In this document: positions 21,040 to 52,977 of the stretch, one piece after another
Layout of the letters: every line of letters begins with the position of its first letter
How positions within the stretch are numbered: position 1 is the first letter of the stretch
Assembly (NCBI GenBank): GCA_028280355.1
Contig: JANQMB010000317.1
Location: forward strand, 1 to 64,000
Reading direction: 5' to 3'
From: Verrucomicrobiales bacterium
Lineage (GTDB): Bacteria > Verrucomicrobiota > Verrucomicrobiia > Verrucomicrobiales > DEV007
Length of the DNA stretch: 64,000 bases
The notes under the pieces: generated by a model
Told to the model about the DNA's origin: nothing
Seen by the model: only the letters and a program-made list of their open reading frames with translations
Database searches by the model: none
Made by a program: the position numbers and the translations under genes

Positions 21040-21574
21040 CAACGAAGGTGCGTAATTCTCCCCGAACCACAATTCCAGACCGATATCCTGCGCCCCCCTT
21101 AAGGATAGGACAGGTGCGCCATGAGGAAAGGCCGCTCGCCTTCAATCTCTGTCGTATATCGTTCAATCTGGTTCTATCCTCCTGCCGTATCTCTATCCAT
21201 TCTTTTCCATCAAAAAACGCAGCCGAAACTCCATCTAGTAGGATCTCAGCGGAGACCGATGACAGCCACTCTACATCCACATTGTTCGCAATGAAGCTGT
21301 CGCTTCGGAAGTCGAACGAAGATCGATTCCTCACACGATCTTCCCAATAGGCATCAAATACGTATTTTCTGCTAGTGAACTCAAATATCCTAAAAAACGG
21401 AATCTTCCCTGTGTAGTAATCACGCACCACGATTCGTATGCCCCCATCGGGAGACACTGACTCGCCAACCTTCTTTCCTCGCATCCCTATATAGGTTAGC
21501 AATGACAATCCTAAAGCTACAACAATCGCAAACCTCAAAAAACATCCTCGCAGCCAATTATTGGAACCCTTCAT
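21023..21574 (-). CDS. single-pass membrane protein, paralogue of the gene at 33039-33494
   Basis: 183 residues from the ATG at 21574. One N-terminal membrane helix (FAIVVALGLSLLTYIGM) precedes a soluble domain with SPDGGIRIVVRDYYTGKIPF and FEFTSRKYVFDAYWEDRVRN. Nearly every residue matches the protein at 33039-33494 up to the shared QRLKASGLSS-type segment; the last ~30 residues are different because the duplication ends near 21145. The nucleotide identity continues upstream to about 21645, covering the last residues of the partner gene that is intact only in the other copy. The partner itself is missing here. Function is unknown. Confidence 0.75.
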   Translation of the reverse strand: MKGSNNWLRGCFLRFAIVVALGLSLLTYIGMRGKKVGESVSPDGGIRIVVRDYYTGKIPFFRIFEFTSRKYVFDAYWEDRVRNRSSFDFRSDSFIANNVDVEWLSSVSAEILLDGVSAAFFDGKEWIEIRQEDRTRLNDIRQRLKASGLSSWRTCPILKGGAGYRSGIVVRGELRTFVDANSQ

Positions 21575-21774
21575 CTCTGACCTCTGGCAGCAGACGCTAT
21601 CGCCACACCGCCAGTTAGGCCAGCGGCAACGGTAATTCATATCCAGCAGCGGCGGGCTTCGCAGGAACGGATAGCTCAGCTCGCTTTGCTCGCCGAGCGG
21701 ACAGTGCCGACACGTGTCGGCGGGTGACCAAGGTTCGATGCTCCTTAAGAAAACGGAGCTCTTATGTGAAAGAA

Positions 21775-21795
21775 GTGGCTCGGGACGGAATCGAA
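21775..21795 (-). other. third, shorter copy of the tRNA-Phe 3' end (old attachment-site remnant)
   Basis: 21 bases identical to the tRNA-Phe 3' end at 52904-52924, after which the match ends. It marks a probable earlier integration at the same target, outside the main left boundary. Confidence 0.65.
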
Positions 21796-21947
21796 TTATG
21801 TTCGGCTGCGCCTCACCTCTGCGGTCTGGCTTCGCAGGAACGGATAGCTCGGCTCACTTCGCTGCGCCGAGCGGGCAGTGCCGACACGTGTCGGCGGGTG
21901 GCCAAAGATCGACGTTCCCTCCTGAAACGTTGCAAACTTTTGAAGAT

Positions 21948-21976
21948 GGTGGCTCGGGACGGAATCGAACCGCCGA
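21948..21976 (-). other. left attachment site: 29-bp copy of the tRNA-Phe 3' end
   Basis: 29 bases identical to 52903-52931, covering the T arm and acceptor 3' strand of the tRNA. The matching direct repeat plus the integrase 268 bases to its right identify it as the distal att site of an integrated element. Confidence 0.88.
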
Positions 21977-22243: not shown

Positions 22244-23455
22244 ATGGCTTCGGTGTTCAGACAACAGGGCTCCCCCTACTGGTATGCGGCCTTCTTCGAC
22301 GGCAGCGGAAAACGGCGCCACCGCTCCACCAAAAAGAGACGGAAGCCCGAGGCCGTCCGTGTGGCTGCGGAGATGGAGCGTCTCGCCCGGCGCAGCAATC
22401 AGCCCCAGAACGACGAGCAATCCGGGGAGATCTACCGGATCCTCGAAGACGCCGGCGGTATGGCGCTACGCGGCCAACTCAATGAATCCTCGGCCAGGGA
22501 CATGCTCAACCGCATCCTGGAGATCTCGACCGGCCAAACCATCGATAACCCCAGCACAGAAGAGTGGCTCAACGGCTGGCTACAGGATAAGAAGGGCTCC
22601 CGGGCTGCCACAACCCACCTCCGCTACGAGGGGGTCATCAAAACCTTCCTCGGCACCCTCCCCCGATCCAAGCGCATCGCCCCGCTCACCGGAATCACGG
22701 TGGCCGATGTTCGCAAATTCCGCGATCTGCTCCTCAAGGGCGGACGATCAGAGACGACCGTCAATATGGCGCTCAAGATCCTTCGCACGCCGCTGAACCG
22801 GGCTCGCAAGCTCGGTTACCTCACCCACAACCCGGCCGAGGCGGTCGATCTCCTAACCGCCGTCATCGAGGAACGGGCAACCTTCACATCCACCCAAGTG
22901 GCTTCGCTGGTCGCTGCGGCGGAGGGCGATTGGAAGGGGCTGATTCTCGGCGGCTATTACACCGGTGCACGAATTGGCGACCTTTCCAACCTCCGATGGG
23001 ATGCAGTCGATCTCGAACGCGGCGCCATCGATTTCCTCCAGGGCAAGACCAAGCGCAGGGTGGAAGTGCCCATACACCCGGAGTTTCGGCGCTGGCTCGA
23101 CAAATGCCCCGCAACTGCACGCACCAAATTCGTCTATCCCAAACTCGCCGGAAAGACGGCAGCAGGACGGAACGGCCTCTCAGGCCAGTTTCGTCGGATC
23201 ATGGAGAAAGCCAAAGTTGCCGGTGAAACCATCCCGAGGAAGGGCTCTAAAGGACGCAATCGATCGACCTTGACCTTTCACTCGCTGCGACACTCGTTCA
23301 ATTCAGCGATGGCGAACGCTGGGGTATCTCAAGAGATGCGACAGAGGCTTACCGGTCACGCCTCAAAAGCAGTCAACGACCGATACACTCACGCCGAGAT
23401 GGAGACTCTAAGACGGGCGGTAGCAACCGTTCCCACGCTTTCGCAAACTTCCTAA
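22244..23455 (+). CDS. tyrosine recombinase (island integrase)
   Basis: 403 residues. The catalytic set is complete: Arg243 (TGARIGDLSNL), Lys268 (QGKTKRR), His346-x-x-Arg349 (FHSLRH), His372 (LTGHAS) and the nucleophile Tyr381 (NDRYTH). The N-terminal ~110 residues contain an arm-binding-like segment (SPYWYAAFFDGSGKRRHRST) and are followed by a SAM-like core-binding domain (about 105-195). It cuts and rejoins DNA at att sites. Its start is 268 bases from the 29-bp left att copy, so it is the best candidate for the enzyme that placed the island in tRNA-Phe. Confidence 0.95.
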   Translation: MASVFRQQGSPYWYAAFFDGSGKRRHRSTKKRRKPEAVRVAAEMERLARRSNQPQNDEQSGEIYRILEDAGGMALRGQLNESSARDMLNRILEISTGQTIDNPSTEEWLNGWLQDKKGSRAATTHLRYEGVIKTFLGTLPRSKRIAPLTGITVADVRKFRDLLLKGGRSETTVNMALKILRTPLNRARKLGYLTHNPAEAVDLLTAVIEERATFTSTQVASLVAAAEGDWKGLILGGYYTGARIGDLSNLRWDAVDLERGAIDFLQGKTKRRVEVPIHPEFRRWLDKCPATARTKFVYPKLAGKTAAGRNGLSGQFRRIMEKAKVAGETIPRKGSKGRNRSTLTFHSLRHSFNSAMANAGVSQEMRQRLTGHASKAVNDRYTHAEMETLRRAVATVPTLSQTS

Positions 23456-23511: not shown

Positions 23512-26500
23512 TCACGCAATCGATCCAAGCCACTCTTCCAGCCCCTGAATTGCGATCACATGATCCGCCGAGAAGTCGATTCCATCAACAAAGCTCATAG
23601 GAACCCGACTGTTAGTGACGAGCAAGGGCACGCATCTGATCTTAGCGGACTCGATCTCAATCCTCGTTGAGAGTCCTCCCAGATTTCCTTCAATCCACTG
23701 CACTCGCCTAGTGTGCTTCGCTAGACGATCTTTCCCTTCGCCCTTGAACTCTTCAAGTCGCTGAATCACATCTCGCATTGTGAGGGAAGCGCGAAGTCGC
23801 TTGCACTCAATGAGTAGCACCACGGCAGTCGCAGCATCCCAGGCCAAAACATCAATGTCCCCAAGATCAGGTTGTTTTGGCGCTCCCAATGCGGTCATTT
23901 TCACTTCAAGATCGCATTCAAACCCGAACCCCTTCAGAGTTTCGGCCACTTCCGATGCGAATTGATGCCCCTTAGTGCCGGCGATCTTCCCGATATACTT
24001 CTTCATCGCCGAAGAGCGGAACTGGCGCTCCGGAAAGTGGCCTTCTACGAGGCCGGACATCAGATACCCCACCCAACGATGAATGTGCGGTGCCGATACC
24101 GAGAGAGTCCTTGGCGCTTTCGAAATTTGAACTAAAGGTCTCTGAAGAACTGAAAGCCCCCTTCGATGTCCCCAGGGAAAGACGTCTTCTTGCTTCAACC
24201 CTTTCGGTAAGTCACGATTCCATCCCTTTCGAATGGGAAGCGTGAATCGTTCAACAAGTGCAGCGGCTTGCTCGCCACTTACTCCGCATTTCTTGCGGAG
24301 CATCGCCCGAAGAATAGTCGCATCAACAACCCCTCCCGCCTGGCCACTTTCGAGCGCCATTTCGTCGAACATCTCAACGAGCTTACCCATGACATTCAAA
24401 TTGAACCCAAACTCCGCTCTAAATGCCCGCTCGAAGTGGCCGACCTCCGTGCTCGGTTTGTCCTCAGCTCCGCTCCCCCGATCATCGCGGGGCTGAAAGA
24501 AATCCTCGTAAGAGCTAGCTGCGAGCCCAATCGAATCGTCGAGATGCGACCCCAAATATGGGCTGAACACCTCTTCATAGAAGGTTTGGTCAATATCGAT
24601 CGCGCCATTTGGAAATATGGTGATCCTCGGCTCCATGAATCCTCCCGCAACAGCGTCACGGTGGTTGGCGAGGATTAAGAGCACGGACATCTCTGCAATT
24701 ACAACGGCGTGCTCGGCAAGCGAAATGGGTCGCTTCTCGGAGTCCGAAGCTGCGTATGTTGCCGTCTCGATAATCAGCCGGTTGGAGATCTCAGCGGAGG
24801 AAAGGTCGTTCAGCCGTGCTCGAAGCTCATGTTGTAGCCAAGGAGCGTTTCCCTCAAGAGCGATCAACGCTCGAGTGGAAAGCTTCCATCTCGACTTGTC
24901 CCGACTAATCTCATCGATTTGTGAGAAGCACCGCGACGCAATTGAATTGATACTGAGCGGCCTAATACGACCTTCGATCCTTTCCCAAATCATTTCGACC
25001 GCCTTCGTCAGGAACTTCGTGGCCTCATCTCGACCTTCGATTCGCCCCCCCTCTGGTCGCCCTACGAGGTCAGCTAATCCGATTTGAGCCTGACTGACGG
25101 CCTCCGGAGGAATAAACGTGGGAGATGGGCGCCCCGGCTCGGCGAGCACAGTCTCAAGAGTGGGCGCATTCACCACATGGAAGAACCGGGCATCCATGCC
25201 TTTGGTGATCTCCTCGACGAGTTCTTCAATTTGAACTCGCTCTTGAGTCTCCCCAATAAGCTCCAATGCAGCGGACGCCAGCAGGCCAACCAATTTCCTC
25301 TCAGCGAGGTTTTCTGGTTGGTGAAATTCAGCCAGGAACTCCTCCCTGACCGTAATCACGGCGTGACCATCGCCCTTCGAAACGGCAACTTGTAACGAAT
25401 CGACCGGATCGGCGCCGACCAAACTCGAAGCAGCTGACCACCCCCACTCACTTACCCCAGGGAGCAAAACTTCGACCAAGACCGAATCGCGCCTGACTGC
25501 CCCAATCTTTCGATCAAAGACGGGCGCTGCGCGATGCAACCAATTCAAGACGCACTCCCAGAGCTGATACTGGAGATCCCTGGCGGCACCGTTCTCCGGT
25601 CTCCCTGGACAAGAAACCCACCACGTTGCATCCCCTCCATCGACACATCCCAATAGTTCCCCTTCGCCTGCGAGCGCTTCGTCTCCATAAATGTTCTCAG
25701 CAGAATAGTCAGGATTTAGACCCTTTGCCACGCGCCTTAGGCGAGCCCAACGAGAACCATCGTGGGTTAGGCGGCAATGACGATCGGCGACCCGATGCAG
25801 ATCGACGCGAACATCCCGGCTAAAGTCCATGGAGATCCCAAGCCGATGCAATCCCTCTCGAACGTCCACTTGAAGGGGAATGATCGAGTATTCGTTCGAT
25901 TTCCAATAGGCATATAGATTGAGCAGGCCAGAAAGATTGGAAAATTCGATTCCAGCGCCCTGGGCGTATTCAAGCTGCTCGCCAAGTCTCCAGAGCCTAT
26001 GGGCGTCGAAACCCGCGTCGTCCAAGAGTGCTCGCCACTCGCCAAGGCCGGCGCCAAAAAAATGCCAGTTTTCAGGCATACGATTGAAACCGATCGATGC
26101 GCCCTGGCCGACCGATGAAACTCCGACAAGTATCATCCCACCTGAGAACCCCTCGACCTTACTGAGCGCATCGCAGCAACCGCCCAAGTAGTCCTCAAAA
26201 TCGGCTACCTGGCTCTCCTCCAGGCTGTCAGGATCATCTAGTGAAGCGCTGTCGCTCAATTGGGAGCAAAACGTCAGTGCTACAATCGTCTTCCCGTAGT
26301 CAAACTGCCCAAAATATGGGAATAGGGGAGGGAGAGAATCTGGGGGGGGCGGAGCGTTGACCTCAATCGGCTGTATTTTGAGTCGCCTGATCACGCTGTT
26401 GATAAAGAATTCAGCACTTTCGATTCCAAAGAAGGTATCCCCCCACCCTCCCATTGATGAGCCAACCCCCTCCATTACCGAACGCATTGCGGCACGGCAA

Positions 26501-27378
26501 AGAAAAGATGGAGTTGCGACAATGATGTTATCTCCACTCCTGAGCAACGGATACCGCTCAATGGAGGAGCCCCAGAGTTTCTCCGCCACAAGGGATTGGC
26601 GCACAGCGTCACTGAGCACGAAACCCTCAAGTGCAGAAAGATCAATGTCTAAGCCCTCCAGTTCTTCGTTTGAGAAGACTATTGCCGCTAAGTGGGACTC
26701 CAGAGTCGCCTCTTCCGGAATGACTACTGCTCCGGCAGCTTGCCCCCCTCCCGGCATATAGCGTTCAAGACCTAGCCTATTCGCGACGGCGTCTCCCAAT
26801 CGCATGAGATGAACCACCCTTTTGAGACTTTCGGAGCAGTTCGGAAAATCAGTCTTCTCTGAAAGGAAGCCAATCAATCTCTCAAGCCAGAAATAGCCGT
26901 TCGCGAAGACTCCGTCGAAGGTGCGCCACCCCCCATAATCAGAACACACATACCCTATAAACGCATCCTCAGGAGAATCCTCCAAGGGCACAAGTGGAGA
27001 ACTGGCCATCAAAACCTCGATCCAGCGCTTAAGGTCATCAGTGGTCGCCAAATGCTCGCCCCTGCATTGAGCAGCAGCGAGGTGGCCAAGGATCTCGATA
27101 CGCAGCGTATTGGCATGGAGATCGGGTATTGTGGCAAGACTTCCAATCAGCGCGCCAGCCGTAGCGTAATCGAGATCCTGCAGTGCTTCGCATGCCTCAG
27201 GGTGCGCCTCACATAACTCCCGAATAGTCCCCTCCATAGCCGAACTCAAGATCTGAATCGCTTGAGAACATGCGAGATACAATGGTTGGGTCAACACGAA
27301 TTCCAGGGCAGTCGCTCTCACGGGTGCACCTTCAAGAAATCTGTAGACTTTGACAGGGATAGCCGTGAGGTCGCCCAC
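23512..27378 (-). CDS. 1288-residue protein with C-terminal PD-(D/E)XK nuclease-like domain
   Basis: I do not recognise the first ~1100 residues; they are soluble, mixed helix/strand, with no signal peptide or membrane helix. Near the C-terminus a restriction-endonuclease-like core is readable: a helix GHQFASEVAETLKGFGFECD, then GDIDVLAW with Asp1174 and Asp1176, then LLIECKRLR with Glu1191 and Lys1193. This is the D...ExK arrangement of Mrr/NERD-type nucleases. A string GQFDYGKT fits the Walker A pattern, but what follows looks like a strand, not a helix, so ATPase activity is not supported. The gene lies 38 bases behind an XRE-type regulator on the same strand, next to the integrase, a typical place for defence cargo. 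A nuclease-based anti-phage role is inference. Confidence 0.8.
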   Translation of the reverse strand: MGDLTAIPVKVYRFLEGAPVRATALEFVLTQPLYLACSQAIQILSSAMEGTIRELCEAHPEACEALQDLDYATAGALIGSLATIPDLHANTLRIEILGHLAAAQCRGEHLATTDDLKRWIEVLMASSPLVPLEDSPEDAFIGYVCSDYGGWRTFDGVFANGYFWLERLIGFLSEKTDFPNCSESLKRVVHLMRLGDAVANRLGLERYMPGGGQAAGAVVIPEEATLESHLAAIVFSNEELEGLDIDLSALEGFVLSDAVRQSLVAEKLWGSSIERYPLLRSGDNIIVATPSFLCRAAMRSVMEGVGSSMGGWGDTFFGIESAEFFINSVIRRLKIQPIEVNAPPPPDSLPPLFPYFGQFDYGKTIVALTFCSQLSDSASLDDPDSLEESQVADFEDYLGGCCDALSKVEGFSGGMILVGVSSVGQGASIGFNRMPENWHFFGAGLGEWRALLDDAGFDAHRLWRLGEQLEYAQGAGIEFSNLSGLLNLYAYWKSNEYSIIPLQVDVREGLHRLGISMDFSRDVRVDLHRVADRHCRLTHDGSRWARLRRVAKGLNPDYSAENIYGDEALAGEGELLGCVDGGDATWWVSCPGRPENGAARDLQYQLWECVLNWLHRAAPVFDRKIGAVRRDSVLVEVLLPGVSEWGWSAASSLVGADPVDSLQVAVSKGDGHAVITVREEFLAEFHQPENLAERKLVGLLASAALELIGETQERVQIEELVEEITKGMDARFFHVVNAPTLETVLAEPGRPSPTFIPPEAVSQAQIGLADLVGRPEGGRIEGRDEATKFLTKAVEMIWERIEGRIRPLSINSIASRCFSQIDEISRDKSRWKLSTRALIALEGNAPWLQHELRARLNDLSSAEISNRLIIETATYAASDSEKRPISLAEHAVVIAEMSVLLILANHRDAVAGGFMEPRITIFPNGAIDIDQTFYEEVFSPYLGSHLDDSIGLAASSYEDFFQPRDDRGSGAEDKPSTEVGHFERAFRAEFGFNLNVMGKLVEMFDEMALESGQAGGVVDATILRAMLRKKCGVSGEQAAALVERFTLPIRKGWNRDLPKGLKQEDVFPWGHRRGLSVLQRPLVQISKAPRTLSVSAPHIHRWVGYLMSGLVEGHFPERQFRSSAMKKYIGKIAGTKGHQFASEVAETLKGFGFECDLEVKMTALGAPKQPDLGDIDVLAWDAATAVVLLIECKRLRASLTMRDVIQRLEEFKGEGKDRLAKHTRRVQWIEGNLGGLSTRIEIESAKIRCVPLLVTNSRVPMSFVDGIDFSADHVIAIQGLEEWLGSIA

Positions 27379-27416
27379 CTCGCTGTCTCACGAAGCCCAA
27401 TCGCTTCTGCGGGGAG

Positions 27417-27659
27417 CTATCGCCCCTGAGCCGCTAACGCCTCTGAGAGAGAGACGTCGAGTGCTTCCGCCAACCTGAGAAGAGTGTAGAGTGTCGGCGA
27501 CCTCTCGCCATCTTCGATGTTCTTGATCGCCGCGTAGCTGATGCCGGAGCGGGAATCGACCTCCCTAAACGAATAGCCGAGAGCCTTTCGCTTCGCCTTA
27601 AGTCGAGCGACGACGGCCTTAACGATTTCGTCTGACGGGTCGGATTCTTCCAAACCCAA
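27417..27659 (-). CDS. XRE-family helix-turn-helix regulator
   Basis: 80 residues, nearly all one HTH_3 domain: VVARLKAKRKALGYSFREV, then SGISYAAIKNIEDGERSP as the recognition region, and TLYTLLRLAEALDVSL. It sits 38 bases upstream of the 1288-residue nuclease-like gene in the same direction, so it is likely its operon partner and repressor. The divergent region in front of it holds a 7-bp inverted repeat (27687-27704) suitable as its operator. The short size resembles restriction-modification controller proteins. Confidence 0.9.
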   Translation of the reverse strand: MGLEESDPSDEIVKAVVARLKAKRKALGYSFREVDSRSGISYAAIKNIEDGERSPTLYTLLRLAEALDVSLSEALAAQGR

Positions 27660-27686
27660 TTTTCGGCTTGCAACCGCAGCCCCGCC

Positions 27687-27704
27687 TGTTATCTATCGAT
27701 AACA
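27687..27704. promoter_or_regulatory. candidate operator for the XRE regulator
   Basis: TGTTATC-TATC-GATAACA: perfect 7-bp arms with a 4-base spacer, between the divergent starts at 27659 (minus) and 27717 (plus). Controller proteins of this size often bind such dyads. Assignment is by position. Confidence 0.55.
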
Positions 27705-27716
27705 ACCGGTTTGGCT

Positions 27717-27959
27717 ATGATACTCAGACGCCTTGGCAAAGATCCCCACCACAACGGCCGCCAGACCTCCTCCTGTGACGGGTGCCCAGACATGTTTGAG
27801 CTTGAATCCGGCGACTTCGCCGTCATCGGGGTTCGAGCCACCGACAGGCTCCGGCCTCATCTGCCTCCCTCGGCGGGTTGCGGGGACGACGAGGAGATTG
27901 TCGTCATCCCGCGGCACACCTTGGTCGAGGCCAGACCAGACATCCCGGCGACTGTCTAG
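27717..27959 (+). CDS. small hypothetical protein
   Basis: 80 residues from the ATG at 27717 (TTG at 27711 is in frame). It reads RRLGKDPHHNGRQTSSCDGC, then MFELESGDFAVIGVRATD and EEIVVIPRHTLVEARPDI. The pattern of a conserved-looking N-terminal block followed by ELESGDFAVIG suggests a real folded mini-protein, perhaps a family carried on mobile elements, but I cannot name it. The antisense frame at 27693-28145 lacks such a pattern. The next gene follows at 27996. Confidence 0.6.
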   Translation: MILRRLGKDPHHNGRQTSSCDGCPDMFELESGDFAVIGVRATDRLRPHLPPSAGCGDDEEIVVIPRHTLVEARPDIPATV

Positions 27960-27995
27960 GTCACTGGCGGAGCGCTCCCTGATACAATGGTGGGG

Positions 27996-28457
27996 ATGGA
28001 ACTCCTCACCACCCTTGCGGACAACTGGTTCACGGCGCTTCAAAGCGTCGGTATCATCGGCAGCTTGCTTCTGGCAGCTGCCTCGCTTCGCGACGATGTC
28101 AAAGAACGAAGGGTAGAGACCTTCCTTACTATCGCCTCCGAGCATCGGAAGATTTGGAGCGAATACTTCAAAGACCCGGCGCTTGCTCGAATCCGGGACG
28201 AATCGGTTGATCTAGAGAACCGGCCGGTGACTCTAGCCGAGCGTCGGTTCGTGCTATCGGTCATTCTCCACCTCAACGCGTCATTCCAGGCGCAGCGTCT
28301 CGGCTCGTATCCAGCGCCCGAACGGGAGCGAGAGGACATCGGACAGTTCTTCTCTCGGCCGATCCCGGCTGCGGTCTTCAGGGAACAGCGCGAGCTGCTG
28401 GACAAGGCATTCGTCGATTACGTTGAGAGGGCGCGCACTGAATCCGAGCGAGTCTGA
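27996..28457 (+). CDS. membrane-anchored hypothetical protein
   Basis: 153 residues; an ATG at 27987 would add three. One N-terminal helix (FTALQSVGIIGSLLLAAASL) is followed by a charged cytoplasmic region of helices (ETFLTIASEHRKIWSEYFKDPALARI, AERRFVLSVILHLNASFQAQ). This architecture resembles small DUF-type proteins with a membrane helix and a four-helix soluble part, found beside mobile-element genes. It precedes the VirD4-like ATPase. Function is unknown. Confidence 0.65.
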   Translation: MELLTTLADNWFTALQSVGIIGSLLLAAASLRDDVKERRVETFLTIASEHRKIWSEYFKDPALARIRDESVDLENRPVTLAERRFVLSVILHLNASFQAQRLGSYPAPEREREDIGQFFSRPIPAAVFREQRELLDKAFVDYVERARTESERV

Positions 28458-28486: not shown

Positions 28487-28548
28487 AAGCCCCTACTACC
28501 CCGACAGCCCGGTCAACCACAGCCACGCTCTCGGTGGACTAGGGGCTT
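28487..28548 (+). other. leader hairpin before the VirD4-like gene
   Basis: AAGCCCCTA (28487-28495) pairs perfectly with TAGGGGCTT (28540-28548), enclosing 44 bases. It sits just upstream of the ATPase start at 28587; it may fold in the leader RNA. No T tract follows that would make it a clear terminator. Confidence 0.5.
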
Positions 28549-28586
28549 TGGTGTCCTCTCGGGTGGAGGCGGTCACCTCTCCCTCC

Positions 28587-29834
28587 ATGCCTTACACCCC
28601 AACCGATCTGGTGATCGCCACCGATCACGTCCACACGAACCACGTCCTTGCGATCTCATCGAAAGGGCGTTCTCAGCACGCCTACATCGTCGGCAAGACC
28701 GGGTGCGGAAAATCGACACTCCTGCGCAATTTGATCATCGCTGAGATCGCGGCCGGAAACGGCGTTGGGTTCCTCGATCCCCACGGATCAGAGGCAGAGT
28801 CCCTTCTCGACGCCATTCCCGCCCACCGGATCAGAGAGACGATCTACTTCAACCCGTCGGACGAAGAATCGGTCATCCCGTTCAACGTCCTGGCTGGTGT
28901 CCCACCCGCGCGCCGGCACCTGGTCGCCGACTCGATCGTCGGTGCGTTCAAGAACATCTGGGGATACTTCTGGGGAGCGAGGATGGAATACATCCTCTTC
29001 AACGCCGTAGCCTCACTCCTTGAAGCAGGCGGGCGAAGCCTCGCCGACATCCGGCCGTTGCTGACTGATCGCGACTTTCGAGCGAGGACGGTGAAACGTG
29101 TTCGCGACCTCGAACTTCGGGCATTCTGGCAGGCTGAGTTTGACGTCTGGCTGCCCCGATTCCGCGAAGAGGCTATCGCCCCCATCCTCAACAAGGTCGG
29201 CCAGTTGATGGCATCACCACCGCTCCGGCGGACACTTGGCCACCCGAAGCGCCATCTCGACATGCGCCGGATGATGGATTCGGGTCAGATCTTCATCGCC
29301 AATCTCACCAAGGGCGGGCTCGGCGAGAGCAAGGCCGGACTACTCGGTTCCTTTTTGGTCTCAGCATTTCAAGAGGCCGCGCTCTCAAGGCCAAGCAAAG
29401 AGGCAGCAACGAAGGCCGGCATCCCCGAACCGTCTCCGTTCACCCTTTTCATCGATGAGTTCCAGTCCTTCGCGACGGAGGCCTTCTCAACCATCCTCTC
29501 TGAGAGCCGGAAATACGGACTGCACCTCGTCCTGGCACATCAGTTCACCTCGCAGCTATCCGATGAGGTTCGAGATGCGATCTTCGGCAACGTCGCGTCA
29601 ATCATCGCGTTCCGAGTCGGAAGCGCCGACGCCGCTATCCTATCACGCGAGTTTGATGACGAGTTTTCGCCAAGGCGGTTCACCGAGCTACCGAATTTCC
29701 GCGTGGCGACGAGATTGCCCGAGGGCGATGGCACTGGTGCGATTCGCCTCGGGCAGACGTTTCCACCGCAGAAGGTGAATCATGGCTACGGGGGCAGCAT
29801 CGTGAAGCTCAACCGTAGTCGGCTCGCTGCCTAG
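28587..29834 (+). CDS. VirD4/TraG-like (HerA-type) ATPase
   Basis: 415 residues from the ATG at 28587 (a GTG at 28548 is an alternative). Walker A is GKTGCGKST at residues 36-44 and Walker B is FTLFIDEF with Asp290-Glu291. LDPHG after the first strand and SRKYGLHLVLAHQ near the sensor region are hallmarks of type IV coupling proteins and related DNA pumps. No membrane helices precede the P-loop, unlike canonical VirD4. It probably moves DNA in conjugation, or unwinds/segregates the element. It is a paralogue of the larger ATPase at 44890-47883. A primase gene follows. Confidence 0.9.
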   Translation: MPYTPTDLVIATDHVHTNHVLAISSKGRSQHAYIVGKTGCGKSTLLRNLIIAEIAAGNGVGFLDPHGSEAESLLDAIPAHRIRETIYFNPSDEESVIPFNVLAGVPPARRHLVADSIVGAFKNIWGYFWGARMEYILFNAVASLLEAGGRSLADIRPLLTDRDFRARTVKRVRDLELRAFWQAEFDVWLPRFREEAIAPILNKVGQLMASPPLRRTLGHPKRHLDMRRMMDSGQIFIANLTKGGLGESKAGLLGSFLVSAFQEAALSRPSKEAATKAGIPEPSPFTLFIDEFQSFATEAFSTILSESRKYGLHLVLAHQFTSQLSDEVRDAIFGNVASIIAFRVGSADAAILSREFDDEFSPRRFTELPNFRVATRLPEGDGTGAIRLGQTFPPQKVNHGYGGSIVKLNRSRLAA

Positions 29835-29923: not shown

Positions 29924-31027
29924 ATGTCGCAACGAATCGACTTCAATCTACTCAAGGAAAAACTGTCCTTTGAGGCAGTCATCACCCACTACAAACTCGA
30001 CCCGAGCAAGGCCAAGGGAGTCCAGCTCTCATGCTTCTGCCCGTTCCCAAACCATGACGGCAAAGGACGGTCTCCGTCGTTCTCTGCACACGTAGAGAAA
30101 GGCCTCTTTCAGTGCTTTGGTTGCAAGGCCAAAGGCGCCGGAATCCTCGACTTCGCTGTCCACATGGCAGGTGGAGACCCCGGTGACTCGACCGACCTAC
30201 GCAAAGCTGCTCGCTACCTTGCCGACTCGTTCGGCATCGATGCGAGTGGTGACCAGAAGCCCAGAAAGAAGAAGGGCAAAAAGCGCAAGGGGAAGAAACG
30301 CAAGAAGTCGAAGAAGAGGGAAGCCGCCGTGTCGGCTTCCGATCCCCAAGCCGAACCGACACCTCACCCCGAACCGGAGGAGGCCGACAGCCCAATGCTG
30401 CCCGTGATCATCAATCCACCCATGACCTTCGAGTTGAAGCGTCTCGATCCCCATCACGACTACTTCACCGAACACGGGATCGAAAGCCGCACGGTCAGCC
30501 ACTTCGGCCTCGGCTATTGCAGCACTGGACTGATGAAGGGCAGAATCGCCATCCCGATCCGACGTGGCGACGGCGAGTTGATCGCCTACGCCGGAAGGAT
30601 CGTCGAGGAAGTGGAGGGGGAGCCGAAGTTCCTGATTCCACCGCCTCGCGAAGAAGAGGGAACTCGCCTTGAGGTGCACACCTCAGCGCTGCTCTACAAC
30701 GGCCACGAACTCGGCCAAGACCTCGAGGAACTGGTCGTTGTCGAGGGCTTTCGCGACGTGTGGCACCTCTGGCAGCACGGCTATCCCGATTGCTGCGGGA
30801 TCTTCGGCTCTGACCTCTCAGACGCCCAACTCCTGCTCGTTCTGGAGCACACGGCTGATGAGGCCATCGTGACCTTCCTGTTCGATGGTGACACAGCAGG
30901 ACGAACCTGCATCGGAAAGTCGTTCATGAAACTCGGCCTTCACCGGGCATGTCGTTGGGTCGAGCTTGAGGACGGGAAGGATCCTCGCGACCTCGCGCCG
31001 GAACAACTGAACCTAGTCCTTGGCTAG
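29924..31027 (+). CDS. DnaG-like primase of the mobile element (zinc finger plus Toprim)
   Basis: 367 residues, about 60 percent of a chromosomal DnaG. A CHC2 zinc finger is visible with Cys39, His44, Cys64 and Cys67 (CPFPNH ... FQCFGC). A Lys-rich linker with many KK and KR pairs (about 112-132) joins it to a Toprim domain with VVVEGFRD (catalytic Glu near 273) and FLFDGDTAG (Asp321, Asp323). It makes RNA primers for copying element DNA, for example after conjugative transfer. The RNA-polymerase core helices and the DnaB-binding C-terminus of DnaG are reduced or absent. It ends at an intrinsic terminator facing the replication-relaxation gene. Confidence 0.9.
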   Translation: MSQRIDFNLLKEKLSFEAVITHYKLDPSKAKGVQLSCFCPFPNHDGKGRSPSFSAHVEKGLFQCFGCKAKGAGILDFAVHMAGGDPGDSTDLRKAARYLADSFGIDASGDQKPRKKKGKKRKGKKRKKSKKREAAVSASDPQAEPTPHPEPEEADSPMLPVIINPPMTFELKRLDPHHDYFTEHGIESRTVSHFGLGYCSTGLMKGRIAIPIRRGDGELIAYAGRIVEEVEGEPKFLIPPPREEEGTRLEVHTSALLYNGHELGQDLEELVVVEGFRDVWHLWQHGYPDCCGIFGSDLSDAQLLLVLEHTADEAIVTFLFDGDTAGRTCIGKSFMKLGLHRACRWVELEDGKDPRDLAPEQLNLVLG

Positions 31028-31093: not shown

Positions 31094-31969
31094 CTACGCC
31101 TTCACCGGGCACGTCCGGTGGAGGCTGACTAGCCGTGCTTCCTTCTTGATAAGCTCGTCCCGTTCTTTGCTCCGGCGATATACCTCGCCACTTGCGACGG
31201 TCGGTGTTGCGGCTGAGAGATTTACAGCCCTGAGCGCCCCTGGCGTGAGGAACACGGCACCCAACGGATCATGGAGCACATCCTTCTTTTCCCCCACCAG
31301 GATGAAGTTGGGTAGCTGCGGAAACTCTTCCCGTAGCAGCCATGCGATGTTGTTCCGGCGTTCAAACGAGGGCACGACAAAAAGGACGCGGAACGGTCTA
31401 CGAAGCCCCGAGCCCGCGAGACTCGAATAGTCCGCAACCTTGGTCACTATGCGCCGTAGTGGTTCAGTCCCACGATCAAGCTCCAAGCAGAATCGGGACT
31501 CCGCCTTGCCGCCACCGGCGACAGTCAGGACGCCATCTGGAAAGATGCGCTTGCCGGCCTCGGTCACAAACCGCCTCTGAGCGAGATACGTGGAGACTGA
31601 GCAACGACCCGTGGCGGCCTTCTCAAAAGCGATCCTTAAGTCAACGACCTCAAGTTCGTGTAGCAGGGTCAGGTCGCTCACCTCGAGCCTCCGCCAGAGA
31701 TGCTTCGACGAGATCTCTGCTCGATCGATGACGTCATGATCCATCGCCAGCGCGCAACCAGCCCGAGACAACGTGTAGACGACGTTTCCGCCCAAGAGCA
31801 GCTCGCGACGCCTCAGAAGCTGTTCGTCAAGCATCGCCCGAAGAACCTCCCCCACCCCATTCATCGGGGAACTAGGTAAAAGTGACTCAAGCTGGTCTTG
31901 AGTGGCCGCACGCGATTGAAAGAGAATCGCCAGAATCTTGAGTTGTAGAGAAAGTGTGTCGGCCTTCAT
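31094..31969 (-). CDS. replication-relaxation family protein
   Basis: 291 residues from the ATG at 31969. The N-terminus is a winged helix (LQLKILAILFQSRAATQDQLESLL; LRRRELLLGGNVVYTLSRAG). The middle carries the family's typical nuclease-like strand pattern: KRIFPDGVLTV then FCLELDRGTEPLRRI, and later PFRVLFVVPSFERRNNI. Members occur on plasmids and conjugative elements with TraG/VirD4 ATPases, where a role in initiating or relaxing replication is proposed from plasmid work; the enzymatic activity is not established. Here it is convergent to the primase. Confidence 0.85.
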   Translation of the reverse strand: MKADTLSLQLKILAILFQSRAATQDQLESLLPSSPMNGVGEVLRAMLDEQLLRRRELLLGGNVVYTLSRAGCALAMDHDVIDRAEISSKHLWRRLEVSDLTLLHELEVVDLRIAFEKAATGRCSVSTYLAQRRFVTEAGKRIFPDGVLTVAGGGKAESRFCLELDRGTEPLRRIVTKVADYSSLAGSGLRRPFRVLFVVPSFERRNNIAWLLREEFPQLPNFILVGEKKDVLHDPLGAVFLTPGALRAVNLSAATPTVASGEVYRRSKERDELIKKEARLVSLHRTCPVKA

Positions 31970-32264
31970 AGTGGGAACCGACCGCTCCACCCCTGTATTG
32001 TATCGAAGACCGGCCACTCCGGGAAGACACACCCCGTCCCAGAGTTATCCCCACTGTGGAAAAGAAGGCCTACCCTTAGCCTATATTTCTCTCTTTAGTA
32101 TTAGGGTTAGAATGGGATAGGCTATCTGGTCGCAGCAAGCACTCGCCGAAACGATGGGAAGCGCTCCTGATGCGAAAGGGACAAGAATGCTGCCCAGCAG
32201 GATGCGAGGCAGCATTCGGGCGAGGGAAGAGATAAATAGGGAAGTCGATTGAGGCCATCAGTCC
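31970..32264. other. intergenic region with dyads; possible origin or control region
   Basis: No ORF is supported. It contains dyad 2 (TTATCC at 32045 leading into CCACTGTGGAAAA) and a strong hairpin at 32185-32217: GAATGCTGCC pairs with GGCAGCATTC around a 13-base loop. AT-rich stretches lie around 32085-32120. Position next to a replication-relaxation gene makes an origin plausible but unproven. Confidence 0.4.
32045..32062. promoter_or_regulatory. CTGTGGA dyad 2
   Basis: TTATCCCCACTGTGGAAA, with a compact CCAC-T-GTGG dyad, upstream of the replication-relaxation gene. It shares ACTGTGGA with the dyads at 29840 and 40754. Confidence 0.4.
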
Positions 32265-33038: not shown

Positions 33039-33494
33039 TCATGATGAGACATCTGAACCCCTCAATCTCTCTCGTATACCATCCAATCTGTTTCTATCCT
33101 CCTGCCGTATCTCGATCCATTCTTTTCCATCAAAGAACGCAGCCGAAATCCCATCCAATCGAACCTCAGCGGAGGTTGATGACAACCACTCTACGTCCAT
33201 TTTGTTCGCGATGAAGCTGTCGCTTCGGAAGTCGAACGAAGATCGATTCCTCGCACGATCTTTCCCATAGGCATCAAATACGTATTTTCTGCTAGTGAAT
33301 TCAAATATCCTCAAGAACGGAACCTTCCCTGTGTAGTAATCACGAACCACAATCCGCATGTCCCCATCGGGAGACACTGACTCGCCAACCTTCTTTCCCT
33401 GCATCCCCAGATATGTCAGCAGTGACAATCCCAAAGCTGCCACAATAGCGAACTTCAAGAGGCATCCTCGTAGCCAGTGGGTGGAAGTCTTCAT
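33039..33494 (-). CDS. single-pass membrane protein of the secreted-protein cluster (duplicated at 21023-21574)
   Basis: 151 residues from the ATG at 33494, which overlaps the upstream stop by four bases. One membrane helix (FAIVAALGLSLLTYLGM) is followed by a soluble domain (SPDGDMRIVVRDYYTGKVPF; FEFTSRKYVFDAYGKDRARN; AAFFDGKEWIEIRQEDRNRL). It is the last gene of the cluster 36533-33039. The near-identical second copy at the left island edge lacks the two upstream genes. Duplicated orphan copies of a small last gene are typical of immunity genes in toxin loci; that reading is inference only. Confidence 0.7.
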   Translation of the reverse strand: MKTSTHWLRGCLLKFAIVAALGLSLLTYLGMQGKKVGESVSPDGDMRIVVRDYYTGKVPFLRIFEFTSRKYVFDAYGKDRARNRSSFDFRSDSFIANKMDVEWLSSTSAEVRLDGISAAFFDGKEWIEIRQEDRNRLDGIRERLRGSDVSS

Positions 33495-49870: not shown

Positions 49871-51190
49871 GTGCAGCGTAAGGGAAGGTCGGGTCAACCA
49901 CCATTTGGGTTCACTTGGAAGGGCGCAGAGCTGGTGCCCAACGCCTCGGAGGCCGCAACGCGAATCTTGGCATTTGAACTATTCGTCGAGCATCGTCGCA
50001 AAGGCACAGTCGCCCGACTCTTGAACGAGCAGGGTCACCGGACAAGGCACGGATCAAAATGGAGCGACATCGCGGTGGGACGGCTTCTCACCTGCACCTC
50101 AGCCAAGGGCGACTACGCACTCAACCGGACGACGACCGACAAGGAAGGCAAGAGGGTCGAGCGGCCGCAGGATGAGTGGGAATGGGTGACCTGTGCCCAG
50201 ATCGTCGACGATCCGCTTTGGGACGAGGTGCAGGACGTTCTCGCAGGTCAGGCAGACAAGCCGGGGCGCTCCGGCCGGTCGCCGATTCACCCCTTCACCG
50301 GACTCATCCAGTGCCACTGTGGCGGCAGGATGACCATCCCGACGGGCGGGACGAAATACGTCTGTGCCGACTGCTCGGGGAAGATCACCGTTACAGAGAT
50401 CGAGGGGGTCTTCCTCTCGGAGCTTGAGGGACTTCTCTGGGAACTCGGTGACTCCCTTGCTCCAGTTGTCTCAGTATCCCGGGAAGAGGCCAAGCTGCGT
50501 GAGACGCTCGCCGCAGCGGAAGCCAGGGCACAGAAGGCCGAAGGGGACATCGACAAGACGCACCAGCTCTATCTCGACGGGAAAATCTCGACCGAACGAC
50601 TCGGGAATCTGATCCAGCCGCTTGAGACCCGACTCGCCGAGAGCCGAACAGAGCTGGCGAAATCCACACGAGAACTCGCTAGGCTCGACAGTTCAGCGGA
50701 CGAGGCAAAGGCTGATTTCGATCCATCGGGCTTGGTCGCCAACTGGTCGAATCTCTCGCTTAAGAACCAGCGCGAGATCGTTCGGACATTCGTCTCTCGA
50801 ATCGTCGTTGGGGTCGATGGCGACCTGGAGATCGACTATCCCTTCAACCCCAATCCCACCCACCAGGCGAATCACCCCAACAAATCACCGGAGGCACCCA
50901 CTTCCCTTAAAGACGGCGGGGATTCCCAACAAATGGCCAGCCCAGCAAATCAGCCGCCGGCGACAACGACCGGCGAGCCGGTCTACATCCGGCTCCCGAA
51001 GGCCGGCGACCTGTGCCCACGAACCGGGCTGACGCGCTCGATGCTAAACGAGCTGATCCTGCCCTCTGAACGCAACGATTTCGCCCCTCCAGTGAAGAGC
51101 AAGAGCCTGCGCAAGATCGGACAGATGCGCGGTGTCCGACTCATCCTATGGGAGAGCCTAAGAGCCCATCTTGCAAGTCTAGGCGACTAA
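49871..51190 (+). pseudogene. large serine recombinase lacking its catalytic N-terminus
   Basis: 439 residues that begin inside the recombinase domain (GQPPFGF, then LFVEHRRKGTVARLLNEQGH and KWSDIAVGRLL). A zinc ribbon (CHCGGRM ... YVCADC), a long coiled coil (about 210-290) and the final RTFVSRIVVG follow. The resolvase domain with its catalytic Ser, usually the first ~150 residues, is absent, and sequence upstream in this frame does not resemble it. A C-terminal extra part (VYIRLPKAGDLCPRTGLTRS) looks like an excisionase-type helix-turn-helix. It is therefore probably inactive for strand exchange, though it could still bind DNA. Confidence 0.85.
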
Positions 51191-52902: not shown

Positions 52903-52931
52903 GGTGGCTCGGGACGGAATCGAACCGCCGA
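52903..52931 (-). other. right attachment site within tRNA-Phe
   Basis: 29 bases identical to 21948-21976, forming the 3' part of the intact tRNA gene. Direct-repeat partner of the left site. Confidence 0.88.
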
Positions 52932-52977
52932 CACAAGGATTTTCAATCCTCTGCTCTACCAACTGAGCTACCGAGCC
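52905..52977 (-). tRNA. tRNA-Phe (GAA)
   Basis: 73 bases. The 7-bp acceptor stem GGCTCGG / CCGAGCC closes at 52977 and 52906; the D arm has AGCTCAGTTGGTAGAGC, the anticodon loop reads TTGAAAA with anticodon GAA, and the T arm has GGTTCGATTCC. The discriminator is A; the genome gives CC after it, then T, so CCA is completed enzymatically. Its 3' end is the island target. Confidence 0.97.

What the first reader, a model, noticed from the sequence alone, without database searches (positions are those of the whole stretch)
23512..27704. XRE regulator plus 1288-residue nuclease-like protein: candidate new defence cassette
A small controller-like regulator with a 7-bp dyad operator precedes a very large protein whose only recognisable part is a C-terminal PD-(D/E)XK core (Asp1174, Asp1176, Glu1191, Lys1193). 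It sits directly beside the integrase, a hot spot for anti-phage cargo. I know no named defence system with this single-protein layout.
Basis: partly seen in the sequence, partly recalled or inferred. Interest (0 to 1): 0.68.

Follow-up and report, generated by a model that had tools for sequence, protein, structure and literature searches.

The report
Upx-family defence nuclease on mobile island
The large protein is a distant but full-length relative of Upx, an already named single-gene anti-phage nuclease, carried as cargo by a 31-kb mobile element inserted at a tRNA-Phe gene; the small regulator next to it belongs to the mobile element rather than to a new two-gene defence system.

Summary
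In detail: a 1288-aa minus-strand ORF with a C-terminal PD-(D/E)XK core (D1174, D1176, E1191, K1193), preceded by a small XRE gene with an exact 7-bp dyad, beside a tyrosine integrase. The protein is not an unnamed defence system. It matches Upx over its whole length (NCBIfam E 7.6e-132, PADLOC E 2.3e-119), and its AlphaFold model (pLDDT 86) has one significant match in the PDB: 9WUF, 'Cryo-EM structure of Upx' (E 4e-55, TM 0.80). It scores below NCBI's strict equivalog cut-off (441 of 1900 bits). It is a divergent Verrucomicrobiota branch of the Upx family, with catalytic residues invariant from bacteria to archaea. The XRE gene is not a conserved partner: none of 29 scanned Upx loci has one upstream. 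XRE, dyad and an overlooked divergent 80-aa ORF form a recurring module of Verrucomicrobiota mobile elements without Upx. The gene is cargo at the integrase end of a ~31-kb island bounded by a 29-bp repeat of the 3' end of tRNA-Phe, where G+C falls from about 67% to 55%. Verdict: an ordinary, well-supported new member of a known defence-nuclease family, with a small new point about its regulation.

The parts
23515..27378 (-). Upx-family protein, 1288 aa (stop codon 23512-23514); GTG start at 27378, or possibly GTG 27321 (residue 20)
   Evidence: NCBIfam NF042954 E 7.6e-132; PADLOC Upx E 2.3e-119; PDB 9WUF by profile E 1.4e-195 and by fold E 4e-55, TM 0.80
23515..24135 (-). C-terminal PD-(D/E)XK nuclease domain, approx. 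residues 1082-1288; D1174 and D1176 (23851-23859), E1191 and K1193 (23800-23808)
   Evidence: invariant residues; domain model pLDDT 82.8, best match Upx 9WUF, then weak matches to Cdn1/Can2, R2, Bse634I and Hjc nucleases
27420..27659 (-). XRE-family regulator, 80 aa, TTG start; 38 bp between its stop codon and the upx start, same strand
   Evidence: Pfam HTH_3 E 3.3e-13; paralog at G000:C110
27687..27704 (.). Probable operator: dyad TGTTATC-N4-GATAACA between the XRE gene and the divergent small ORF
27717..27956 (+). Divergent 80-aa ORF conserved next to XRE genes in other elements; no Pfam match
   Evidence: 51-62% identity in related genomes; Pfam none
27987..28454 (+). 156-aa protein with a hydrophobic N-terminus; element backbone gene following the small ORF
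   Evidence: homologs in 6 of the 7 other element loci examined
28548..29831 (+). TraD/VirD4-like coupling ATPase, element backbone
29924..31024 (+). DnaG-type primase (CHC2 zinc finger plus Toprim), element backbone
31097..32032 (-). Replication-relaxation (MobC-like) protein, mobile-element gene
   Evidence: Pfam Replic_Relax E 2.8e-15
22244..23452 (+). Tyrosine integrase at the end of the element, convergent with upx
   Evidence: Pfam Phage_integrase E 5e-21
21948..21976 (+). att-like repeat at the integrase end (29 bp exact: GGTGGCTCGGGACGGAATCGAACCGCCGA)
52903..52931 (+). att-like repeat at the other end, the 3' end of tRNA-Phe (52903-52977, minus)

Best explanation
A divergent, intact member of the Upx family of single-protein anti-phage nucleases. 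It is carried as cargo at the integrase end of a ~31-kb integrative element that entered the chromosome by site-specific recombination at the 3' end of tRNA-Phe. Shown by computation: homology over the whole length, the Upx fold, the nuclease active site, the att repeats and the backbone genes. Inferred: the ~1,080 residues in front of the nuclease domain act as sensor and restraint, and on infection release the C-terminal metal-dependent PD-(D/E)XK domain to cut nucleic acid, most likely phage DNA. Also inferred: upx is transcribed with the upstream XRE gene from a promoter at the dyad, so the element's own repressor keeps it low. The XRE, dyad and divergent 80-aa ORF belong to the element backbone, not to Upx.
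For: Family: NCBIfam E 7.6e-132 over residues 45-1264; PADLOC Upx E 2.3e-119; all 28 members of the homolog set match NF042954. Structure: sequence profile against PDB 9WUF E 1.4e-195; model pLDDT 86.4, pTM 0.86; Foldseek against 9WUF E 4e-55, TM 0.80, no other hit under 0.001. Active site: D1174, D1176, E1191, K1193 invariant; the domain alone matches only 9WUF significantly, with weaker matches mostly to PD-(D/E)XK nucleases. Tree: sister to a 45%-identical Verrucomicrobiia protein, in the half of the family that holds a canonical Upx fragment. Defence company: four relatives lie in type I R-M clusters, with hsdR confirmed in three, some with Schlafen/AlbA or OLD-like ATPase genes. Element: tRNA-Phe repeats, G+C drop, integrase and backbone. 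XRE module independent of Upx.
Against: The score is 441 bits against the NCBI equivalog cut-off of 1900, and identity to 9WUF is 21% in the Foldseek alignment, so equal function is inferred, not shown. No phage data exist for this protein. What the N-terminal part senses and what the nuclease cuts are unknown; the papers I could read give no mechanism for Upx beyond the class 'nucleic acid degradation' (PMC10855318).
Confidence: 0.88

Rival explanations
1. A new two-gene defence cassette: the XRE protein is a dedicated controller of the nuclease, like a C protein of restriction-modification systems, and the pair moves as a unit.
For: XRE lies 38 bp upstream on the same strand with a likely operator; a paralogous XRE has a near-identical dyad.
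Against: None of 61 upstream ORFs at 29 Upx loci matches an XRE-type HTH family; phmmer with the XRE finds none nearby. The XRE-dyad-small ORF module recurs without Upx. No methyltransferase partner; no N6_Mtase or Methylase_S in the 85.6%-complete genome. Limit: the closest relative (L022/L010) is cut by its contig end, so its upstream region could not be tested.
Confidence: 0.08
2. The Verrucomicrobiota Upx is an accessory subunit of type I restriction-modification, because its relatives sit directly after hsdS.
For: hsdM-hsdS-upx runs with overlapping or abutting genes in L018/L023, L019/L024 and L020; in L029 upx precedes hsdM-hsdS-hsdR.
Against: hsdR is present in L020, L023 and L029, so Upx does not replace it; most homologs and the window lack type I genes nearby, and none was found in the window's genome.
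Confidence: 0.04
3. A housekeeping or element-maintenance nuclease of the mobile element, not a defence protein.
For: It lies in the element next to the integrase.
Against: Not found in the other related element loci by the ORF comparison; homologs occur in unrelated settings and in defence clusters; the family is a named anti-phage family.
Confidence: 0.05

Closest known systems
Upx (NCBIfam NF042954; PADLOC PDLC02221; PDB 9WUF); from the 2020 survey by Gao et al., as cited in PMC10855318
   Same: Single large protein, homology over the whole length, same fold (TM 0.80), C-terminal PD-(D/E)XK core with conserved catalytic residues, found on mobile islands
   Different: About 21-26% identity; below the NCBI equivalog cut-off; Verrucomicrobiota branch; sits after an XRE gene of its element
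C-protein controlled restriction-modification systems
   Same: Small XRE protein with a dyad upstream, directly before a nuclease gene
   Different: No methyltransferase; XRE not conserved with the nuclease; XRE belongs to the element backbone
Type I restriction-modification (HsdR/M/S)
   Same: Several relatives of this Upx sit inside such clusters
   Different: No helicase domain recognised; not a replacement for HsdR; not found in the window or its genome
ICE/IME elements and islands that carry upx (PMC12824646, Vibrio europaeus; Pseudomonas PAGI-1 hotspot 6, PMC12629846)
   Same: upx as cargo of integrative elements or genomic islands
   Different: Different host phylum; element backbones not compared

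Membership tests
Upx family (broad sense) | Homology over the whole length to the Upx profile | tested here: met
   NF042954 5-1223 of 1240, E 7.6e-132; PADLOC E 2.3e-119
Upx family (broad sense) | Same overall fold as the solved Upx structure | tested here: met
   9WUF, E 4e-55, TM 0.80/0.79 over 1246 columns
Upx family (broad sense) | PD-(D/E)XK catalytic residues intact | tested here: met
   D1174, D1176, E1191, K1193 invariant; domain fold
Upx family (broad sense) | Works as a single gene | tested here: inconclusive
   No conserved partner in 29 loci, but expression was not tested
Upx family (broad sense) | Protects against phage | not testable with these tools
   Needs a plaque assay
Upx equivalog as named by NCBI | Score over the curated cut-off of 1900 bits | tested here: not met
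   440.8 bits; no match over the cut-off in 388 genomes of its phylum
C-protein controlled R-M | Cognate methyltransferase beside the nuclease | tested here: not met
   None in the neighbouring genes scanned; type I methylase families not found in the genome
Type I R-M | HsdM and HsdS present | tested here: not met
   (genome 85.6% complete)

The most novel reading that the evidence does not exclude
The mobile element's own XRE/80-aa-ORF switch controls the defence nuclease, so that defence is tied to the state of the element (for example raised when the element is derepressed for transfer), an element-level coupling not described for Upx in the papers I could read.
Probability: 0.2. Interest if true: 0.45.

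Novelty: new member of a known kind. Interest (0 to 1): 0.25.

Why it matters
It extends Upx, known to most annotation from a narrow group, to an intact Verrucomicrobiota branch and shows a family reaching many bacterial phyla and archaea with an invariant active site. The current equivalog cut-off misses these members, so Upx is under-counted. It also corrects a tempting misreading: a regulator next to a defence gene can belong to the carrier element.

Tried and rejected
Scan of viral contigs with the protein: no relative. Phage records: no match. Pfam on the large protein: nothing. Megablast of the Salmonella upx fragment against E. coli genomes: no match. BFVD fold search: no match under 0.001. 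Upx as a substitute for HsdR: rejected, because hsdR is present in the clusters checked. Type I partner elsewhere in the genome: none found. Other PADLOC families among ten further island proteins: only HerA/mad8/DndH-type matches to the TraD-like ATPase, read as coupling-protein similarity. Papers: no open paper giving a Upx mechanism was found; the 2020 discovery paper is not held.

Full report
Observation. The minus-strand ORF 23515-27378 has 1288 codons and no internal stop. The XRE gene at 27420-27659 ends 38 bp before it, on the same strand. The dyad TGTTATC-TATC-GATAACA lies at 27687-27704. The integrase at 22244-23452 is convergent, 56 bp between the two stop codons. The start codon of the large gene is uncertain: GTG at 27378, or GTG at 27321 with a better-spaced GAAGG.

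Identity. Pfam gives nothing for the large protein. NCBIfam NF042954 (anti-phage protein Upx) matches residues 45-1264 with E 7.6e-132, 440.8 bits, below its equivalog cut-off of 1900. PADLOC's Upx model gives E 2.3e-119. A profile of ten relatives matches PDB chain 9wuf_A over the whole length at E 1.4e-195. An AlphaFold model of residues 89-1288, built on 28 sequences, has pLDDT 86.4 and pTM 0.86. Its only significant Foldseek match in the PDB is 9WUF, 'Cryo-EM structure of Upx', E 4e-55, TM 0.80, 21% identity.

Active site. In 28 homologs the equivalents of D1174, D1176, E1191 and K1193 are invariant, with N690, E871, D908, P1068, W1069, R1073, P1081, G1173 and R1225 (add 88 to its numbering). 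A separate model of residues 1060-1288 (pLDDT 82.8) matches 9WUF best; the weaker matches are mostly nucleases of this fold, such as Cdn1/Can2, R2, Bse634I and Hjc.

Distribution. One scan of 84,980 species genomes gave 25 loci from Verrucomicrobiota, Acidobacteriota, Gemmatimonadota, Chloroflexota, Bacteroidota, Actinomycetota, Bacillota and archaea (Methanosarcina, Helarchaeota), among others; plasmids add six records. The tree puts the window protein with a 45%-identical Verrucomicrobiia protein, in a 12-row half of the family that also holds the Salmonella fragment L021 (1482.9 bits to NF042954 over two thirds of its length). The tree is a quick one and several long branches are unsure. 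Within the phylum 6 of 388 genomes have a match, none over the cut-off.

Neighbourhood of relatives. Four relatives sit in type I restriction-modification clusters: L018/L023, L019/L024 and L020 have hsdM and hsdS just before upx, L029 has hsdM-hsdS-hsdR after it; HsdR was confirmed in L020, L023 and L029. Two tandem upx copies occur in L042 and L037. No XRE-type family was found in 61 ORFs within about 1.6 kb upstream of 29 loci. The nearest relative could not be tested, because its contig ends inside the gene.

The XRE module. The genome has one other close XRE (C110, 41% identity), with the dyad TGTTCTCTATAGAGAACA about 33 bp before its start; these two sites are the only ones in 4.4 Mb with up to two mismatches. 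Upstream of both XRE genes lies a divergent small ORF of one family (window 27717-27956). Homologs of this ORF at 51-62% identity occur in other genomes of the order. In L071, L072 and L073 a divergent XRE gene lies beside it, with an inverted repeat in between: 10-bp arms in L072, 9-bp arms in L073, and an imperfect one read by eye in L071. Several of these loci also carry homologs of the window's 156-aa protein, coupling ATPase, primase, 251-aa protein, 1170-aa ATPase and serine recombinase. None of these element loci gave a Upx hit in that comparison. I read the XRE as a backbone gene of the element. Its place just upstream of upx still makes co-transcription likely (inference).

The island. 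A 29-bp exact repeat lies at 21948-21976 and 52903-52931, the latter being the 3' end of tRNA-Phe. G+C is about 67% outside and about 50-60% between ~20.7 and ~52.9 kb. A second, 21-bp copy at 21775-21795 lies within a ~174-bp tandem duplication and hints at repeated insertion.

Mechanism. Best reading: an infection-triggered nuclease, held in check by its large N-terminal part, that cuts nucleic acid. Only the fold and the active site are shown. PMC10855318 lists Upx under nucleic acid degradation and cites the 2020 survey by Gao et al.. PMC12824646 and PMC12629846 report upx on integrative elements and islands, so this setting is usual for the family.

Verdict. New member of a known kind; interest 0.25.

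Noticed in passing
21948-52931: Whole ~31-kb integrative element at tRNA-Phe with two tyrosine recombinases (22244, 40782), a serine recombinase (49871-51187), two TraD-like ATPases, a primase and a replication-relaxation protein; probably composite.
   Followed up: partly
27717-27956: Unannotated 80-aa gene family (CPD...E...GDFAVIG...LP), divergent from an XRE gene in several Verrucomicrobiota elements; no Pfam match.
   Followed up: partly
21139-21438 and 33059-33358: 300-nt direct repeat, 89% identical, from two copies of one small gene, one of them just outside the att repeat.
   Followed up: no
21655-21969: Tandem duplication of ~174 bp that carries a second 21-bp copy of the tRNA-Phe end; may mark an earlier insertion.
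   Followed up: no
L042:7871-15246 and L037:3465-11788: Two upx homologs in tandem in Pyrinomonadaceae and Chitinophagaceae.
   Followed up: no
L007: upx of Sinorhizobium meliloti plasmid pHRB800 looks broken up; IS66-family genes lie between its pieces.
   Followed up: no
L020, L023, L029: upx inside complete type I restriction-modification clusters with Schlafen/AlbA or OLD-like ATPase genes.
   Followed up: partly
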